Source: Candidatus Tiddalikarchaeum anstoanum
Lineage (GTDB): Archaea > Nanobdellota > Nanobdellia > Tiddalikarchaeales > Tiddalikarchaeaceae
DNA: 64,000 bases
Reading direction: 5' to 3'
NCBI GenBank assembly: GCA_902385255.1
Contig: CABMEV010000012.1
Coordinates: 1 to 64,000 of the forward strand
The first letter of the stretch is position 1. The number at the start of each line of letters is the position of its first letter. Below, one piece after another: positions 17,641-26,784 of this stretch. Made by a program: the position numbers and the translations under genes. The notes under the pieces are model-generated. The model made no database searches. It worked only from the letters and a program-made list of their open reading frames with translations, and had not been told where the DNA came from.

Positions 17641-18042
17641 TTACGTCACCACTATTTTTTTCCTGCTTTTATAGAATGCAAGACAGGTTAATCCTTCTTT
17701 TTTTGCACGCTCTCGTAAAATTTTATCACCTGTCACTATAAAAGCGTTTTGCTTCTTTGCATAGGAGAGTATTTTGCTGTCAACATCCTTCTCCCCGATA
17801 ACATCAATTATTTTAATTCCCAGTTTTAAAACATTTTCTTTTGCCATTACAGCTTCTGTAATACCATTCTTTTCAAGTTTTTCAAGCTCGTTTAAGCTTT
17901 CTTTGAGCACTACGAGCTCGGAATTAGGGTAATTATATCGTATTTCAGAGAATATGTCAAACTTGTCCCGTATAGGCACAAATAATATATTCGTATCCAG
18001 TATTATTTCGGTACGATTTTTCCCCAACCCGTCAGCACCCAC
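17641..18042 (-). CDS. PIN-domain protein (Fcf1/Utp24-like)
   Basis: 133-aa PIN nuclease-like protein. EIILDTNILF supplies the first acidic residue (D16), and the C-terminal DSKILSYAKKQNAFIVTGD supplies the others. The position between aIF2-gamma and Rpo7 is the conserved archaeal place of the Fcf1-like PIN protein thought to act in rRNA processing, which favours that over a VapC toxin. The start ATG lies inside the 3' end of eif2g (40-bp overlap). No alternative ATG precedes the PIN core, so the overlap seems real. Confidence 0.85.
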   Translation of the reverse strand: MGADGLGKNRTEIILDTNILFVPIRDKFDIFSEIRYNYPNSELVVLKESLNELEKLEKNGITEAVMAKENVLKLGIKIIDVIGEKDVDSKILSYAKKQNAFIVTGDKILRERAKKEGLTCLAFYKSRKKIVVT

Positions 18043-19229
18043 CTATTGTTTACTTTTCTTGAGATTACAACTCTTTCTCCAGGAAGTATCGCTATTGGCA
18101 GGGTTAGTATTATATTAATGATATCCTTCTTGATGTTTTTGATAACTCCTGAAGTCCTGCTCGTCCATGCATTAATGAGCAAAGGCTCGTTTATTTTTAG
18201 CGGAGTTACTTCCTTATTCCTCTCTATAATGTGGGTTTCCAGAAATAATTCCGTGAAAACATTAATCGGCTTATTCGCCAGGCATACTACATTTCCTGCT
18301 AACCTGTCAGCCTTGCAAAAGTAAGGGTCAAGTTTTGTCGATAATCCAAAACTCCCTCCGGGCTTTACTTCGTCAATGAACATGTCGCCATAGTTTAAGT
18401 TGTCAATCACAGTCTTAAGCTGGGTCCACGTTTTCTTATCCTCATCATGGAATCCGGGAAGTATGATTATCTCATCGCCTTTTTTTAATCTGCCCTGTTT
18501 TAATGCTCCGCCAAGCACGCTGCCCACCAAGTCATTTATCGCCTTTCCAGGACGGTTGACATCAAAACTCCTTGCAACTATCATGATAGGGTCTTTGGTT
18601 AAATCACGAACAGGAGTTTTTATGTAAGTCTGAATGGCCTGAAGAAGAGCATCTATGTTTATACCCTGCTGGGCAGAGATAGGAATTATTGGTGCAGTTT
18701 CTGCAACTGTTCCCTTGACAAATGCGTTAATCTCATTATAATTCTTTTTTAATTGTTCAGGAGTCACTAAGTCAATCTTATTCTGGACTATGATTATGTT
18801 TTTCACGCCGACAGTGTCTAATGCTATCAAATGCTCCCTCGTCTGCTGCTGAGGACAAGGCTCATTCGCAGCTATAACTAGGATAGCAGCGTCCATTATG
18901 GCAGCTCCTGAAAGCATAGTCGCCATTAATGTTTCATGGCCGGGGGCATCTACGAAGCTGATTTTTCTCTGCACTACGCTTTTACTGTTATGCTTCATGC
19001 ACATTGGAACTGTAGAATAACACTCAGGCTCGTCGCACTTCTCGCACTTGTAAATAGTGCACTGCGCGTAGCCAAGTTTTATAGTGATGCCTCGCCTTAT
19101 CTCCTCACTGTGCGTTGTAGTCCTCTTTCCAGTAAGCCTTTCTAATATAGTAGTCTTTCCATGGTTTAAGTGCCCTACAACACCCATGCTGATTTCCGGA
19201 AGTATAACCTCTTTTTTATCTATAATCAT
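18003..19229 (-). CDS. eif2g: Translation initiation factor aIF2 subunit gamma
   Basis: GTPase subunit of the factor that delivers initiator tRNA. G1 is GHLNHGKT at 19-26 (most homologues have GHVDHGKT), followed by switch I REGIT-like RRGITI, zinc knuckle C62/C65/C70/C77, G3 DAPGHE at 94-99 and G4 NKID. Domains 2 and 3 follow, and 408 aa is the usual length. It is preceded by an unknown 563-aa gene rather than directly by rps6e. Confidence 0.96.
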   Translation of the reverse strand: MIIDKKEVILPEISMGVVGHLNHGKTTILERLTGKRTTTHSEEIRRGITIKLGYAQCTIYKCEKCDEPECYSTVPMCMKHNSKSVVQRKISFVDAPGHETLMATMLSGAAIMDAAILVIAANEPCPQQQTREHLIALDTVGVKNIIIVQNKIDLVTPEQLKKNYNEINAFVKGTVAETAPIIPISAQQGINIDALLQAIQTYIKTPVRDLTKDPIMIVARSFDVNRPGKAINDLVGSVLGGALKQGRLKKGDEIIILPGFHDEDKKTWTQLKTVIDNLNYGDMFIDEVKPGGSFGLSTKLDPYFCKADRLAGNVVCLANKPINVFTELFLETHIIERNKEVTPLKINEPLLINAWTSRTSGVIKNIKKDIINIILTLPIAILPGERVVISRKVNNRWVLTGWGKIVPK

Positions 19230-21018: not shown

Positions 21019-21420
21019 TTACTTTTTCTTCTCTTCGCCCTCTTTAGGTGCTTTTTTGAATATCTCGTCCAGGTTTGCAGTTCCGTATTTTGTTATCTTC
21101 GTGTTAACCTGTTCTATTTCCTCATTTAAAGTGTGTCCTCTTACTGTTTTTCTTGTCCTGTAGCCTTTCTCGCTGTTTTTAAGTCCAACACCTTTGGATA
21201 ATAATATCCTTGAACGCTTGCTTCCCTTTATCTCTGGGCGTATCGGAAAGCCGCTCTTGTCGCTTCCGCCGGTTATCAAAAACTGGTAACCTTGCAGGTC
21301 GAATAATTCGCCGTTTAAAGTATCCCCAACTTTCTTCTGATATAATTGGTCTTCAACGCTTTTATCTAACACTTTCTGGTAACTCTTGCCAGTTTTAGGG
21401 TCTGATATTACAATTTTCAT
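21019..21420 (-). CDS. rps6e: Small-subunit ribosomal protein eS6
   Basis: 133 aa, archaeal short form. MKIVISDPKTGKSYQK and the GGSDKSGFPIRPEIKGSKRSR-type block (residues about 51-71) are diagnostic. A Shine-Dalgarno GAGGTG lies 9-14 nt before the ATG. The transcript has a leader of about 75 nt, judged from TATA GTTTAAAAAC at 21517-21526, and a hairpin at its very 5' end. It heads the long operon leading to Bud32. Confidence 0.95.
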   Translation of the reverse strand: MKIVISDPKTGKSYQKVLDKSVEDQLYQKKVGDTLNGELFDLQGYQFLITGGSDKSGFPIRPEIKGSKRSRILLSKGVGLKNSEKGYRTRKTVRGHTLNEEIEQVNTKITKYGTANLDEIFKKAPKEGEEKKK

Positions 21421-21934: not shown

Positions 21935-22858
21935 TTATTGTTTTGTTATTGAAATGACAACGTTTGGTGATAATTTAGTGGCGCTCTTTGTTATCTTCGC
22001 ATCATAATTAATTATGCAGTAATCAATTAATTCTCTGGTTGAATCAGTTAATTCAACCCAAGATTCGGAAACGTTCATATCCGGTCCGCCATTCAAAAAT
22101 TTGATAACATCTGACCTAGTCTTGGTTAAATTTGCTGCTTCATCAAAGATTAATGACCCATTACTATTTAGCAGGTTTTCTAAACAATAATTTATTACTT
22201 TCATCTGATCAATAGGTGATAAATAGAAAAGAGCATTAGTTGAATAAATCACATCAAATTTTGTATCATTAATCACATTCTCAATATCCCTTAAATCTCC
22301 TTCTATAAGTTTTACATTCTTGATATCATCTTGAGTTGTTAAATTCAAGTCTACACCGTATCCAATTATGTCTTTTTTATATTCCTCACCATATAATTTT
22401 ATAATATCCTTAATAGACCTGCCAACAGGTCCGCATCCTAAATCAAGCACACAAACTTTATTTTTTAAATTAAACTGTCTCATAATTTCATCATATATAC
22501 CAAGAATACTATCTACTATTTTGCCGCTTCTCGTTGCTGCGATTTCCCTGCGAGTTTGAAACATAGCCCAGATTAATTTCAAGTCATCTTTAGGCAATAT
22601 CTCTGTTAATTTTTCCATTGTACCAATTTTTAACTGCAAAGACATTATATCATAAAGGTCTAATACATCCTTGTTATCAACGATTAAATCAATTGCATCT
22701 TTAGACAGGTTAAAATTAGGATAATATTGATGCCAATAACGTTCAAATAATTCAGTATGGTATTGTGTACTTAGTGACTTTGACTTTTCATATTCAGCGA
22801 GGTATTCTTTAACCTCTAATCCCCCGTTTCGTACAAATTCTAACAGTTCAATTTTCAT
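21935..22858 (-). CDS. SAM-dependent class I methyltransferase
   Basis: 307 aa. The SAM-binding motif I VLDLGCGPVGRS lies at about 137-148, followed by an acidic motif II (GYGVDLN), DLRDIE and FDVIYSTNALFYLS as motif IV. An unassigned helical N-terminal domain of ~130 residues precedes the core, perhaps for substrate recognition. The substrate is unknown. It lies 30 bp downstream of the ArmA-like gene on the same strand, so the two methyltransferases are likely co-expressed. Confidence 0.8.
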   Translation of the reverse strand: MKIELLEFVRNGGLEVKEYLAEYEKSKSLSTQYHTELFERYWHQYYPNFNLSKDAIDLIVDNKDVLDLYDIMSLQLKIGTMEKLTEILPKDDLKLIWAMFQTRREIAATRSGKIVDSILGIYDEIMRQFNLKNKVCVLDLGCGPVGRSIKDIIKLYGEEYKKDIIGYGVDLNLTTQDDIKNVKLIEGDLRDIENVINDTKFDVIYSTNALFYLSPIDQMKVINYCLENLLNSNGSLIFDEAANLTKTRSDVIKFLNGGPDMNVSESWVELTDSTRELIDYCIINYDAKITKSATKLSPNVVISITKQ

Positions 22859-22888: not shown

Positions 22889-23686
22889 TTAAACATTGCT
22901 TTTTCTCACTATATAGAATAATTCGTTAGGTATCTCGAAATATTCAAAAGGCATGTTTAAACGGTTTAACATTACTTCAAACCAAGTCCTTCTTTTGCCA
23001 GTCATGTTTCTGCCGCTTAACGTCTTAGTTGAAAAACTGACAATAACCCATTTCGCAGGAACTTTCTTGACAATATCCTCAGTCAGCCTGTGGCTCTTTG
23101 TCGTCTCGAGTATCTCAACAAGCTTAAACAGGAATGTTGTATCAAAAATTTTACCAAACTCGTAATCACTGCTCTCCGCATCAAACAATACAGTGCGCCC
23201 GGTTATGCCTTTCTTGTTAAAATAATCCTGTATTATAGTCAGGTCTTTTCCGTTAATATCGCAGGCTACGTATTCAACATTTAACAAATGCATAAACTCA
23301 AAGCTTACAGGGTTCATGCCGCATCCAATATCAAGTATCGATGATGGCATCCCTGTTATTGTGAATATCTTATTGTAAACCTCCTCATAATAAGGAAGCC
23401 TTTCAAAACTGCTCTTATGAGACTTTAACAAACCTGTAAAATCATTCTTCGTTAAGAGTTCATTCCGGTCCATTTTAGTATTCTGAAAAACCCCATATTG
23501 TCTGCGAAGAACCGCCCTGACTTTTTTGACAAAACTTTTGTAACACTCAGTCTTAAAACGCCCCTCCTCGATTATAACCTTAGTCTTACTGTCAAGCAGT
23601 GATTCAATAATCTTAGTAACTAATTTCTTATCAATTCCAGATAACTCTTTCTTTTCCAACACGTCGCTTATTACCTGCTCGTTCAT
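22889..23686 (-). CDS. 16S rRNA m7G1405 methyltransferase (ArmA/Rmt/FmrO) family homologue
   Basis: 265 aa. The layout follows the bacterial aminoglycoside-resistance methyltransferases: a helical N-terminal region of ~100 residues, SAM motif ILDIGCGMNP at 117-126 (ArmA has a closely similar ILDFGCGFNP), then FDTTFLFKLVEILE, then the signature VSFSTKTLSGRN at 216-227 with WFE at 235-237 and a C-terminal NELFYIV. ArmA-family enzymes methylate N7 of G1405 in helix 44. Homology is seen from motifs recalled, not from a search. Whether the archaeal protein acts on the same base, and whether it gives drug resistance, is unknown. It begins 4 bp after the MFS gene ends. Confidence 0.8.
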   Translation of the reverse strand: MNEQVISDVLEKKELSGIDKKLVTKIIESLLDSKTKVIIEEGRFKTECYKSFVKKVRAVLRRQYGVFQNTKMDRNELLTKNDFTGLLKSHKSSFERLPYYEEVYNKIFTITGMPSSILDIGCGMNPVSFEFMHLLNVEYVACDINGKDLTIIQDYFNKKGITGRTVLFDAESSDYEFGKIFDTTFLFKLVEILETTKSHRLTEDIVKKVPAKWVIVSFSTKTLSGRNMTGKRRTWFEVMLNRLNMPFEYFEIPNELFYIVRKSNV

Positions 23687-23689
23687 TTT

Positions 23690-24874
23690 TTAGTACTCCT
23701 TTAAGCCTCTTATTAAAAAAACAGGCAGTAGTATTAAGACTGTGAGTATTAAATAAAAATTGCTGTAGCCGAAAGAAGAAATTAATATTCCTGCAATGAA
23801 AGGACCAATTGCAGAACCTGTGTCCTGAATCATTGAAAACACCCCTGTTAAACTTCCAGCCTCCTCAATTGACAATAAGTCCGTTAATTTAGCATTCATG
23901 CATGAGTACACGAAAGAGTAACCTGTGTTTATCAGGAAGGTAAAAAGCATGAACTGTTCAAAACTCCTGCTGATTCCTAAAAATATTAAGCTTACAGATA
24001 TAATTAACAATCCAGTGATTGTTGGAATCTTCCTGCCGTACTTATCGCTTAATGCTCCGACAAAAGGCGGGAATAATATGTAAGGCATGTATCCTCCTGC
24101 AAGTATTACGCTTATCTCACCAATGTTTATGTTATTATTTTGAAGCTGTATTGGAAGAAAGTTCGAGAATCCTACAATTACACTTATGGATATAAAAGCC
24201 AGTATTGAAATTCTAAACGATGCCTTGTTTTCGAAGAACATGTCAAGCTGCTCCCTGAAACTTTGCTTATTGTTATTAACAGGTTTTTCAGACTGTATGA
24301 AAACAGTTGCATAAAAGAAAGATAATAATGCCAGTATGGACGCAGTATAAAATATGAAATTCGAAGGCATTAATGATATTAATACTCCTCCAATCATTGG
24401 TCCAATGACGTAAGCTATATTCTGGACCATTTCCCAAAAGCCGACTTCTTCCTGGGCATAATTTCCTTTAGTTTTTCTCCTGATTAAAGTCCAGCCTGAA
24501 ACCCATAATCCTGAGCAGGCAATTGCGTGAAAAACCCTGACTAATAATAGTGTTGTAAAATCATATGCGAAGGTGTAGCAGAGAAATACTGCGCTGTATG
24601 ATAACAGGCTTAACTGGAGCACTCTTTTAGGATTAATCTTATCGCACAATCTTCCTATATTCGGGTCTAAGAAAATCATCACTAACCCAAGCATTGAGTA
24701 AATAATTCCTGACAAAAATAATGAATTTGTAATATCATTAATCCTGATGTTAAATATTGGCGTGACCAAACCCCATCCTAACAAGTAGATTAGGAATGTG
24801 AATGATAACGCGCTTAACTTTCGAAAATGTCTGCCTCTCTCTTTTATGAACTCGCGAAAAGTTTCAAGCATCAT
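23690..24874 (-). CDS. MFS transporter
   Basis: 394 aa with about 12 hydrophobic segments. Two copies of the MFS loop motif are visible: GRLCDKINPKR between helices 2 and 3, and GALSDKYGRK between 8 and 9. This half-repeat is typical of drug/proton antiporters and sugar efflux proteins; the substrate is not deducible. It is the first gene of a run with the ArmA-like methyltransferase (4-bp gap), a second methyltransferase and a helical protein. The start may be the second Met at 24871. Confidence 0.85.
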   Translation of the reverse strand: MMLETFREFIKERGRHFRKLSALSFTFLIYLLGWGLVTPIFNIRINDITNSLFLSGIIYSMLGLVMIFLDPNIGRLCDKINPKRVLQLSLLSYSAVFLCYTFAYDFTTLLLVRVFHAIACSGLWVSGWTLIRRKTKGNYAQEEVGFWEMVQNIAYVIGPMIGGVLISLMPSNFIFYTASILALLSFFYATVFIQSEKPVNNNKQSFREQLDMFFENKASFRISILAFISISVIVGFSNFLPIQLQNNNINIGEISVILAGGYMPYILFPPFVGALSDKYGRKIPTITGLLIISVSLIFLGISRSFEQFMLFTFLINTGYSFVYSCMNAKLTDLLSIEEAGSLTGVFSMIQDTGSAIGPFIAGILISSFGYSNFYLILTVLILLPVFLIRGLKEY

Positions 24875-24995: not shown

Positions 24996-25694
24996 ATGCC
25001 CAATGATAATATGCTCGTTCCTGTTGGTATCGCCGGTTTTGATGACGTAATAGGCGGAGGCGTCTTTCCAGGCAGCTGCATCTTATTAATAACTCCTCCT
25101 CTGATAGAAGCCAGGCTTTTTGGCTTAGAATTCATATACAGGGGCTTGGAAAAAAACATTCCGGGACTTTTTATCGCAATGGACGAGTCGCCTGAAACGT
25201 TGAAATTGAAAGCGCTGCGATACGGATGGGTTTTAACGAGCGGCGAAAGCAAGAATCTTCTAAAATGGGTTGACGGCTACAGCAGCAAGGCGAACATTAA
25301 AGTTAACGACACTAATGCCATTAAGAGAGTCAGCGGACCTCTCGCATTAAGCGATATCAGCATTGCAATCAGCGGAGCACAGGCGTTATTTGGCACGAAG
25401 AGCAGCACTTACAAATTAGTGTTCGACTCGTTGTCAACGTTGTCTTTCTACAGCAGTCCGGAAACCATCTACAGGTTTCTCCAGGTGATAACTGCGAAAG
25501 TGAAAACAAGCAACGGTGTAGGATTATTTGTAATAACTGAAGGGATGCACAGCCCGGATTTCATAATGACTATCCGCCACATGATGGATACGATAATACA
25601 ATTTGACGACAACTTGAATTTTAATTTCCAGTCCGAGCTTACAAGACAGACAGGCAGACTTCTTCTAGGCAGAAACGGCTTCGAAGTGAAATAA
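24996..25694 (+). CDS. KaiC/RecA-like protein with degenerate Walker A
   Basis: 232 aa. The KaiC-family frame is intact: GIAGFDDVIGGGVFPGS at the N-terminus, then a beta strand, EFIYRGL, LFIAMDESPE, Walker B-like LVFDSLST. The P-loop position (residues 32-39, ITPPLIEA) has lost G-x-x-G-x-G-K-T completely, so ATP hydrolysis in the usual manner is unlikely. TATA-like GTTTTAAAAAC at 24961-24971 is 30 nt before the ATG. It converges with the active KaiC-like gene at 25699 and may be its regulatory partner, by inference. Confidence 0.85.
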   Translation: MPNDNMLVPVGIAGFDDVIGGGVFPGSCILLITPPLIEARLFGLEFIYRGLEKNIPGLFIAMDESPETLKLKALRYGWVLTSGESKNLLKWVDGYSSKANIKVNDTNAIKRVSGPLALSDISIAISGAQALFGTKSSTYKLVFDSLSTLSFYSSPETIYRFLQVITAKVKTSNGVGLFVITEGMHSPDFIMTIRHMMDTIIQFDDNLNFNFQSELTRQTGRLLLGRNGFEVK

Positions 25695-25698
25695 TTTT

Positions 25699-26784
25699 TT
25701 ACTTTATAACTTCATTGAACACTTCTTCATTGCTCATTACTTCCAAACCATTCTGTGTGAATCTGATTGGATGAATCTTCTCGCTGTGCTGTGTCCCTCT
25801 CATTTTTATTATAGCAATCATTCTCATGAACTGGTTTAACACCTTGGTGTAGTACAAGAAAATTATTCCATCACTTGTCAGGTCTGACTGGCTTAGCGTC
25901 TCTGGAGCATTAGCTTCAGTAGTTATTATCGTTGTGCAGCCTATCTTTTTCAGCATGCTGCTAAGTTCTATGAGCGCTTTCCTGGAATCTATATCCCTCT
26001 CAAAGAATAATCCAAGGAGAGCCCCAGGGTCTATGACTAATCTTTTTGCACCTATTCTTGTAACATTCTCCCTGATTGAATCTTTTAATAAGTTGAACTT
26101 GTACATCGGCGTTTTTGCGATTATTATTTTTTCTTTTTTGATTAATTTTTCAAAATCCCATCCGAACTCTTCGCCTGTTCTCATCAGCCTTTCAGGCTCC
26201 TCCTCTAATGTTACGAAAACTCCAGGCTCGTTATACTTCGATGCCCCCTCGTATATGAATTGAAGGCACATTATAGTCTTCCCGCTTCCAGGTCCACCGC
26301 TTACAGTTACCAAATTACCTTCAGGTATTCCCCCATCCAGTACGTCGTCAAGCCCTGGAATCCCGCTTTTGACGGATTTATAATCTTTTTTGATTTCAGT
26401 TTCAGGATTTATGAATTCCTCATTTAATTTTTCAGCAGATTCGCCGTTATTCTTAATAGGCTGGGTAAAATCTGCCAACTCATCTTTTTTCGGATTCTTT
26501 AATGTTGCCCATGAAGCAGGACTTTTATTATTAACATCTTCTTTTGGAGTTACTGTCTCTTTTTTAGAAATATTTGGTGTCGCCCATGATGCAGGGCTTT
26601 TATTATCAGGTTTTGTTATCGTCTTTTCTGGAATATTTTTTTCTTTTTTAGGTTCAGCCCATGAAGAGGGGCTGGTTTTGACTTTCTCCAATTTAGGATG
26701 CTCAACTTCTTTTTCAGCTTTTGATACTTTGATTTTCTTCTCTATATTCTCATTTTTTGAGGGAAGTACTATTACCTTAACCAT
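25699..26784 (-). CDS. KaiC-like ATPase with N-terminal 25-residue repeats
   Basis: 361 aa. The C-terminal ~225 residues form a single RecA-like KaiC domain: GIPGLDDVLDGGIPEG, Walker A GGPGSGKT at 163-170, LVIDPGALL as Walker B. Such single-domain KaiC proteins include ArlH of archaella. The N-terminal ~135 residues are Lys/Glu/Pro-rich and contain three tandem 25-residue repeats starting with SPSSWA (38), SPASWA (63) and SPASWA (88). It is divergent from the pilus operon across a 103-bp region of repeats, so a role in pilus assembly or its control is plausible but inferred. Confidence 0.85.
   Translation of the reverse strand: MVKVIVLPSKNENIEKKIKVSKAEKEVEHPKLEKVKTSPSSWAEPKKEKNIPEKTITKPDNKSPASWATPNISKKETVTPKEDVNNKSPASWATLKNPKKDELADFTQPIKNNGESAEKLNEEFINPETEIKKDYKSVKSGIPGLDDVLDGGIPEGNLVTVSGGPGSGKTIMCLQFIYEGASKYNEPGVFVTLEEEPERLMRTGEEFGWDFEKLIKKEKIIIAKTPMYKFNLLKDSIRENVTRIGAKRLVIDPGALLGLFFERDIDSRKALIELSSMLKKIGCTTIITTEANAPETLSQSDLTSDGIIFLYYTKVLNQFMRMIAIIKMRGTQHSEKIHPIRFTQNGLEVMSNEEVFNEVIK

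What the first reader, a model, noticed from the sequence alone, without database searches (positions are those of the whole stretch)
22889..23686. Archaeal homologue of ArmA/Rmt aminoglycoside-resistance 16S rRNA methyltransferases
The SAM motif, the VSFSTKTLSGRN-WFE block and the helical N-terminal layout match the m7G1405 methyltransferase family, known from aminoglycoside producers and resistant bacteria. An archaeal chromosomal member could show an ancestral housekeeping role or exposure to aminoglycoside-like compounds.
Basis: partly seen in the sequence, partly recalled or inferred. Interest (0 to 1): 0.72.

Follow-up and report, generated by a model that had tools for sequence, protein, structure and literature searches.

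The report
Archaeal housekeeping-type G1405 rRNA methyltransferase
A small archaeon carries a chromosomal relative of the ArmA/Rmt enzymes that make bacteria aminoglycoside-resistant; its spread through half of the sampled phylum and its ribosome-gene neighbours suggest it is a routine ribosome-maturation enzyme, not a resistance gene.

Summary
The gene at 22889-23686 (-) is real and belongs to the FmrO/Arm family of 16S rRNA m7G1405 methyltransferases by Pfam, Foldseek and motifs, with the N-terminal domain present. It is not an ArmA/Rmt-type resistance gene: in trees, 116 archaeal members form one clade, apart from all bacterial and plasmid members.

About half of 279 sampled genomes of the phylum have it, clustered by family. 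Recurrent neighbours are ribosome genes: Pelota in 23 loci, Dim2/Pno1 in 8, S6e with aIF2gamma in its own order.

Unexpectedly, chromosomal bacterial relatives (mostly Chloroflexota) sit beside tgt, rsmI (C1402), an RsmF-like gene (C1407) and often a second copy of themselves. The family looks like decoding-site rRNA maturation machinery, with clinical ArmA/Rmt as one branch.

The archaeon's own 16S rRNA keeps G1405, but its order carries C1404U paired with G1497A, plus U1498A.

Archaeal membership is not new: Podar et al. 2013 reported it in Nanoarchaeota. The spread, contexts and housekeeping reading were not found in the literature searched. Catalysis and exact nucleotide remain untested.

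The parts
22889..23686 (-). FmrO/Arm-family 16S rRNA methyltransferase, 265 aa (coordinates include the stop codon)
23420..23686 (-). aa 1-89, helical N-terminal domain (RNA-binding domain of the family); K54, R57, L60 and G65 conserved in 87-92% of 116 archaeal members
   Evidence: model secondary structure; conservation
23399..23419 (-). family motif H-K-S-S-F-E-R (aa 90-96); H, S, E, R shared with the bacterial enzymes
23309..23332 (-). SAM-binding motif I D-I-G-C-G-M-N-P (aa 119-126)
23123..23125 (-). K188, conserved in 97% of archaeal and all bacterial members aligned
22979..23038 (-). S-F-S-T-K-T-L-S-G-R-N...R-R-T-W-F block (aa 217-236); R233 and W235 typical of the archaeal clade, G-M and Y of the bacterial one
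22922..22924 (-). E255, in every archaeal and bacterial sequence aligned
21019..21420 (-). ribosomal protein S6e, downstream; directly adjacent to the methyltransferase gene in three of the four order-mates
18003..19229 (-). aIF2 gamma (408 aa); the same cluster lies beyond S6e in the order-mates
   Evidence: (order-mate named by Pfam)
21935..22858 (-). class I SAM methyltransferase of unknown substrate (307 aa), lying between S6e and the gene; absent from the four order-mates
23690..24874 (-). MFS transporter immediately upstream (3-nt gap); order-mates have only 23-24% identical MFS proteins elsewhere

Best explanation
A chromosomal, mainly vertically inherited ribosome-maturation enzyme. 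It uses S-adenosylmethionine to methylate the small-subunit rRNA in the decoding helix h44, most likely N7 of G1405, through the same two-domain architecture as Sgm/RmtC: a helical domain that docks on the 30S subunit and a Rossmann-like catalytic domain. The modification would be constitutive and tune decoding or late SSU maturation; any aminoglycoside protection would be incidental. Shown: family, predicted fold, motifs, distribution, gene neighbourhoods, and that the own 16S rRNA keeps G1405. Inferred: catalysis, the exact nucleotide and atom, and the physiological role.
For: PF07091 and NF000466 matches; model with the top 16 PDB fold matches all Arm-family, Sgm TM 0.81/0.83. H90, S92, E95, R96, D119, G123, N125, P126, K188 and E255 are shared between the archaeal and bacterial clades. 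Strong hits in 140 of 279 phylum genomes (my tally), uniform in 31 of 44 multi-genome families against 9.9 by shuffling. Three ribosome-linked contexts: Pelota overlapping upstream (23 loci), Dim2/Pno1 (8 loci, within aIF1A-Rio1-Dim2-RMT-TopoVIB), S6e with aIF2gamma; RsmB/F-family genes directly after it in three loci. Bacterial chromosomal relatives lie with tgt (51 of 73 loci), rsmI (20 loci) and an RsmF-like gene (13 loci at +2), the latter two families acting on 1402 and 1407. The own 16S rRNA keeps G1405.
Against: No biochemical data. The gene is absent from about half the phylum, so it is dispensable at that scale. Most loci outside the three contexts have unrelated neighbours. The target residue is inferred from homology at about 25% identity, and several bacterial-specific positions (H61, P219, G227, Y232) differ in the archaeal clade. 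The fold prediction used an alignment containing bacterial Arm homologues, so it is not independent of the sequence assignment.
Confidence: 0.62

Rival explanations
1. Same family and same kind of substrate, but a different target nucleotide or RNA: the archaeal clade has diverged and methylates another residue near the decoding site, or another structured RNA.
For: The archaeal clade is separated by a long, fully supported branch. Positions nearly invariant in bacterial enzymes differ (H61 to R, P219 to S, Y232 to R) and R233/W235 are archaeal. In this order the bases next to G1405 have changed.
Against: The motifs shared by all members (H-x-S-x-x-E-R, D-x-x-C-G-x-N-P, K188, E255) are kept, and contexts point to the small subunit and, in bacteria, to enzymes acting on 1402 and 1407.
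Confidence: 0.25
2. Resistance or self-protection gene: the archaeon meets aminoglycoside-like compounds, and the enzyme, with the adjacent MFS pump, protects it.
For: Homology to ArmA/Rmt; an MFS transporter with similarity to drug efflux families lies 3 nt upstream.
Against: The MFS gene is not conserved beside the gene in the order; distribution is clade-wide rather than sporadic; the recurrent neighbours that could be named are mostly translation genes.
Confidence: 0.08
3. Recent transfer of a bacterial Arm gene into this genome, or contamination of the assembly.
For: Podar et al. 2013 read the nanoarchaeal gene as shared with Bacteria; a second, bacterial-side paralogue exists in two order-mates.
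Against: The window protein sits in the archaeal clade with 100/100 support and with its four order-mates, on a contig with S6e and aIF2gamma.
Confidence: 0.03

Closest known systems
Sgm / FmrO / GrmA-type m7G1405 methyltransferases of aminoglycoside producers (PF07091)
   Same: Two-domain fold (TM 0.81/0.83 to Sgm 3lcv); local sequence match with the SAM and H-x-S-x-x-E-R motifs
   Different: About 20% identity; producers carry it for self-protection (established knowledge), whereas here it is a clade-wide chromosomal gene, often beside ribosome genes
Acquired ArmA and RmtA-H resistance methyltransferases (NF000466)
   Same: Family and shared conserved residues
   Different: 24-28% identity to the five tested, score below the Rmt equivalog cut-off, separate clade with 100/100 support, not seen on mobile elements. 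RmtA, D, G, H were not in the tree.
Nanoarchaeal rRNA (guanine(1405)-N7)-methyltransferase of N. equitans and Nst1 (Podar et al. 2013, PMC3655853)
   Same: An archaeal member of the same family, noted from genomes
   Different: That report knew it in no other archaea and treated it as shared with Bacteria; here about half of 279 phylum genomes have it, as one archaeal clade. N. equitans itself was not in my alignment by name.
Chromosomal Arm homologues of Chloroflexota, Armatimonadota and Bacillota
   Same: Family, chromosomal, next to translation and rRNA-modification genes
   Different: Bacterial clade; neighbours are tgt, rsmI, a tandem second copy and an RsmF-like gene instead of Pelota, Dim2 or S6e

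Membership tests
FmrO/Arm 16S rRNA methyltransferase family (PF07091) | Profile match above the curated cut-off | tested here: met
   67 bits against 27
FmrO/Arm 16S rRNA methyltransferase family (PF07091) | Helical N-terminal domain plus class I methyltransferase domain over the full length | tested here: met
   Model pLDDT 92; Foldseek alignment to Sgm over 276 columns, TM 0.81/0.83
FmrO/Arm 16S rRNA methyltransferase family (PF07091) | Conserved H-x-S-[ST]-x-E-R, D-x-x-C-G-x-N-P, K188 and E255 | tested here: met
FmrO/Arm 16S rRNA methyltransferase family (PF07091) | Target nucleotide G1405 present in the organism's own 16S rRNA | tested here: met
   CGCCUGUC in own 16S, (numbering by the universal motif)
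FmrO/Arm 16S rRNA methyltransferase family (PF07091) | Methylation of N7 of G1405 in assembled 30S subunits | not testable with these tools
   Needs an enzyme assay or rRNA mapping
Acquired ArmA/Rmt resistance group (NF000466 equivalog) | Score above NCBI's equivalog cut-off | tested here: not met
   140.8 bits against 250; ArmA itself scores 321
Acquired ArmA/Rmt resistance group (NF000466 equivalog) | Grouping with ArmA/Rmt in a tree | tested here: not met
   Archaeal and bacterial/plasmid sets separated at 100/100
Acquired ArmA/Rmt resistance group (NF000466 equivalog) | Association with mobile elements or resistance genes | tested here: not met
   No recurrent neighbour of that kind among the clusters named across 119 archaeal loci; MFS neighbour not conserved. 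Singleton neighbours were not all named.
Acquired ArmA/Rmt resistance group (NF000466 equivalog) | Confers aminoglycoside resistance | not testable with these tools
   Needs a bench test
Kam/NpmA m1A1408 methyltransferase family | Profile or fold match ahead of the Arm family | tested here: not met
   No Kam/NpmA match among the Pfam, NCBIfam or PDB sequence hits listed; the top 16 fold matches are all Arm-family and no NpmA is among the 50 shown

The most novel reading that the evidence does not exclude
The Arm/FmrO family is in the main a housekeeping decoding-site rRNA methyltransferase family, constitutive in about half of a DPANN-type archaeal phylum and in many Chloroflexota (in rsmI-tgt-RMT-RMT-rsmF-like gene strings). 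The clinical ArmA/Rmt and producer enzymes would be a resistance branch recruited from it. In this archaeal order the decoding helix itself has changed next to the target (U1404-A1497, A1498).
Probability: 0.45. Interest if true: 0.8.

Novelty: new variant of a known kind. Interest (0 to 1): 0.6.

Why it matters
m7G1405 is known as a costly drug-resistance mark: in E. coli every Arm/Kam enzyme tested reduced fitness (PMC12406665). If archaea and Chloroflexota carry it constitutively, ribosomes can be built around it, the origin of ArmA/Rmt can be sought in housekeeping genes, and resistome surveys that count PF07091 hits as resistance would overcall. It also gives a testable modification at the decoding site in a phylum where KsgA/Dim1 is mostly missing (clear match in 62 of 279 genomes).

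Tried and rejected
(1) Replacement for missing KsgA/Dim1: rejected as a simple story, since presence of the two is not associated (36/62 against 99/217, Fisher p 0.087). (2) Resistance cassette with the MFS pump and the 307-aa methyltransferase: neither is conserved beside the gene in the order. (3) Contamination or recent transfer: contradicted for this copy by tree and contig. (4) First genome-contig scan with the window protein found nothing; a second with an ArmA-led alignment gave 80 bacterial loci, so no named archaeal relatives were obtained. (5) The key papers on Sgm (Husain 2010) and N. equitans rRNA methylation (Seistrup et al.) are not held. (7) Prevalence of the family across Chloroflexota could not be measured because no genome handle was available. 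(8) Two alignments failed on wrong coordinates and were redone.

Full report
Observation. The ORF 22889-23686 (-) is intact and encodes 265 aa. It matches PF07091 FmrO (67 bits, cut-off 27) and the general Rmt model NF000466 over its whole length (140.8 bits, E 4.6e-41, but below the equivalog cut-off of 250). In the PDB the closest sequences are Arm-family enzymes, Sgm first (5e-15). The own genome (1.16 Mb, 13 contigs) has one PF07091 match.

Fold. A model built from the window protein and 41 bacterial relatives has mean pLDDT 92, with helices throughout the N-terminal part followed by a class I methyltransferase fold. The first 16 PDB matches are all Arm-family structures (Sgm 8e-19, TM 0.81/0.83; RmtF, RmtB, RmtC, ArmA); the next falls to 5e-8. 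The alignment contained Arm homologues, so this confirms architecture more than it adds independent evidence of kinship.

Residues. Across 116 archaeal and 85 bacterial or plasmid sequences, K54, L60, G65, H90, S92, E95, R96, Y104, D119, C122, G123, N125, P126, Y139, K188, S217 and E255 (window numbering) are shared at 80% or more. R57, R233 and W235 mark the archaeal clade, and H61, P219, G227 and Y232 the bacterial one.

Phylogeny. A tree of 203 sequences puts 116 archaeal proteins on one side of a branch (98*), with all bacterial and plasmid sequences plus a divergent archaeal paralogue on the other. A slower mixture-model tree of 58 sequences gives 100/100 for this split and 100/100 for the window with its four order-mates. 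The root is not inferred, so the direction of any ancient transfer is open.

Distribution. With a profile of 30 archaeal members (A3), 153 of 279 phylum genomes match at E <= 0.001. By my count of that table, 140 are strong (E < 1e-19) and 13 weak (E > 1e-7). PF07091 alone finds 130 over its cut-off. Presence follows families: 31 of 44 families with two or more genomes are uniform, against a shuffled mean of 9.9 and maximum of 20 (family labels were transcribed by hand). This is the pattern of mainly vertical inheritance with losses.

Gene neighbourhoods in archaea. Among 119 loci, Pelota (TIGR00111, tested on one representative) lies directly upstream on the same strand in 23, with a median overlap of 10 nt, usually followed by TrmB and often PheS-PheT. 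Dim2/Pno1, a KH protein of 16S maturation, is directly upstream in 8 (median overlap 1 nt), in some loci within a full aIF1A-Rio1-Dim2-RMT-TopoVIB order and in others with part of it. S6e is directly downstream in three order-mates, with aIF2gamma beyond it; in the window S6e lies at 21019-21420 and an aIF2gamma-like ORF at 18003-19229, with two extra genes between S6e and the methyltransferase gene. RsmB/F-family m5C methyltransferase genes directly follow it in 3 loci and lie nearby in a fourth; the archaeal representative tested scores best with a tRNA C49 model, below its cut-off, so its target is open. No recurrent resistance or biosynthesis neighbour appeared among the clusters named. 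The background rate of translation neighbours was not computed, and loci within a family are not independent.

Gene neighbourhoods in bacteria. An ArmA-led alignment found 354 relatives in GTDB genomes; the best 80 were kept, mostly Chloroflexota, some Armatimonadota, Bacillota and Patescibacteria-type. In 73 usable loci, tgt is immediately upstream on the same strand in 51. An rsmI gene (TIGR00096, C1402 2'-O-methyltransferase) is within two genes in 20, a second PF07091 copy follows in 20, and an RsmF-like gene (RsmF is the C1407 m5C enzyme; below the model's cut-off) is second downstream in 13. Family names rest on one representative per cluster. C1402 and C1407 flank G1405, so this is contextual evidence for decoding-site maturation. 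The sample is biased towards ArmA-like sequences.

Substrate. The own 16S rRNA (G000:C1:74088-75555) reads CGCC-U-GUC where nearly all other phylum genomes with the motif read CGCCCGUC, so G1405 is kept and C1404 is U. The opposite strand reads AAGUCAACACAAGG, i.e. G1497A (restoring a U-A pair) and U1498A. All five genomes of the order share this; the other genomes inspected keep C1404 and G1497, and one (G076) has U1498A alone. Numbering is by the universal motif, assigned by hand. Whether this change and the long stem branch of the order's enzyme are linked cannot be tested with one clade.

Prior art. Podar et al. 2013 (PMC3655853) reported the gene in N. equitans and Nst1, then known in no other archaea. 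Literature searches found no description of the wider distribution, of the contexts above or of a housekeeping role; the library lacks many subscription papers.

KsgA/Dim1. Only 62 of 279 phylum genomes have a clear KsgA/Dim1 (threshold set by eye at the gap in scores), consistent with the reported absence in N. equitans and some nano-sized archaea (PMC7897474). It is not associated with presence of the Arm homologue.

Verdict. The resistance reading is unsupported, and a housekeeping small-subunit rRNA methyltransferase, probably acting at G1405, is the best explanation at about 0.62. The archaeal member as such is known; the distinct archaeal clade with ribosome-linked contexts makes it a new variant of a known kind.

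Noticed in passing
L247:1501-2968 (own 16S rRNA, G000:C1:74088-75555); also L278, L279, L281, L282: Order-wide changes in the normally conserved decoding helix: C1404U with compensating G1497A, and U1498A. In the phylum sample T1404 was otherwise seen only in a second copy in G105.
   Followed up: partly
L167-L246, e.g. L188, L196, L210, L222, L231, L235, L237: Chloroflexota and others carry chromosomal Arm homologues in rsmI-tgt-RMT-RMT-RsmF-like gene strings, often with two tandem copies of the methyltransferase.
   Followed up: partly
L044:1011-1772, L045:8627-9406, L049:8796-9675: A second, divergent Arm-family paralogue in order-mates G001 and G002 lacks the H-x-S-x-x-E-R motif and groups on the bacterial side; a similar one in G004 is split over two reading frames.
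   Followed up: partly
phylum sample: KsgA/Dim1, usually called near-universal, has a clear match in only 62 of 279 genomes of this phylum.
   Followed up: partly
window 21935-22858 (-): A 307-aa class I methyltransferase of unknown substrate lies between S6e and the gene in this genome only; absent from the four order-mates.
   Followed up: partly
window 24996-25694 (+) and 25699-26784 (-): Two ORFs that look like KaiC-type ATPases by eye (not searched) lie close to the gene, on opposite strands.
   Followed up: no
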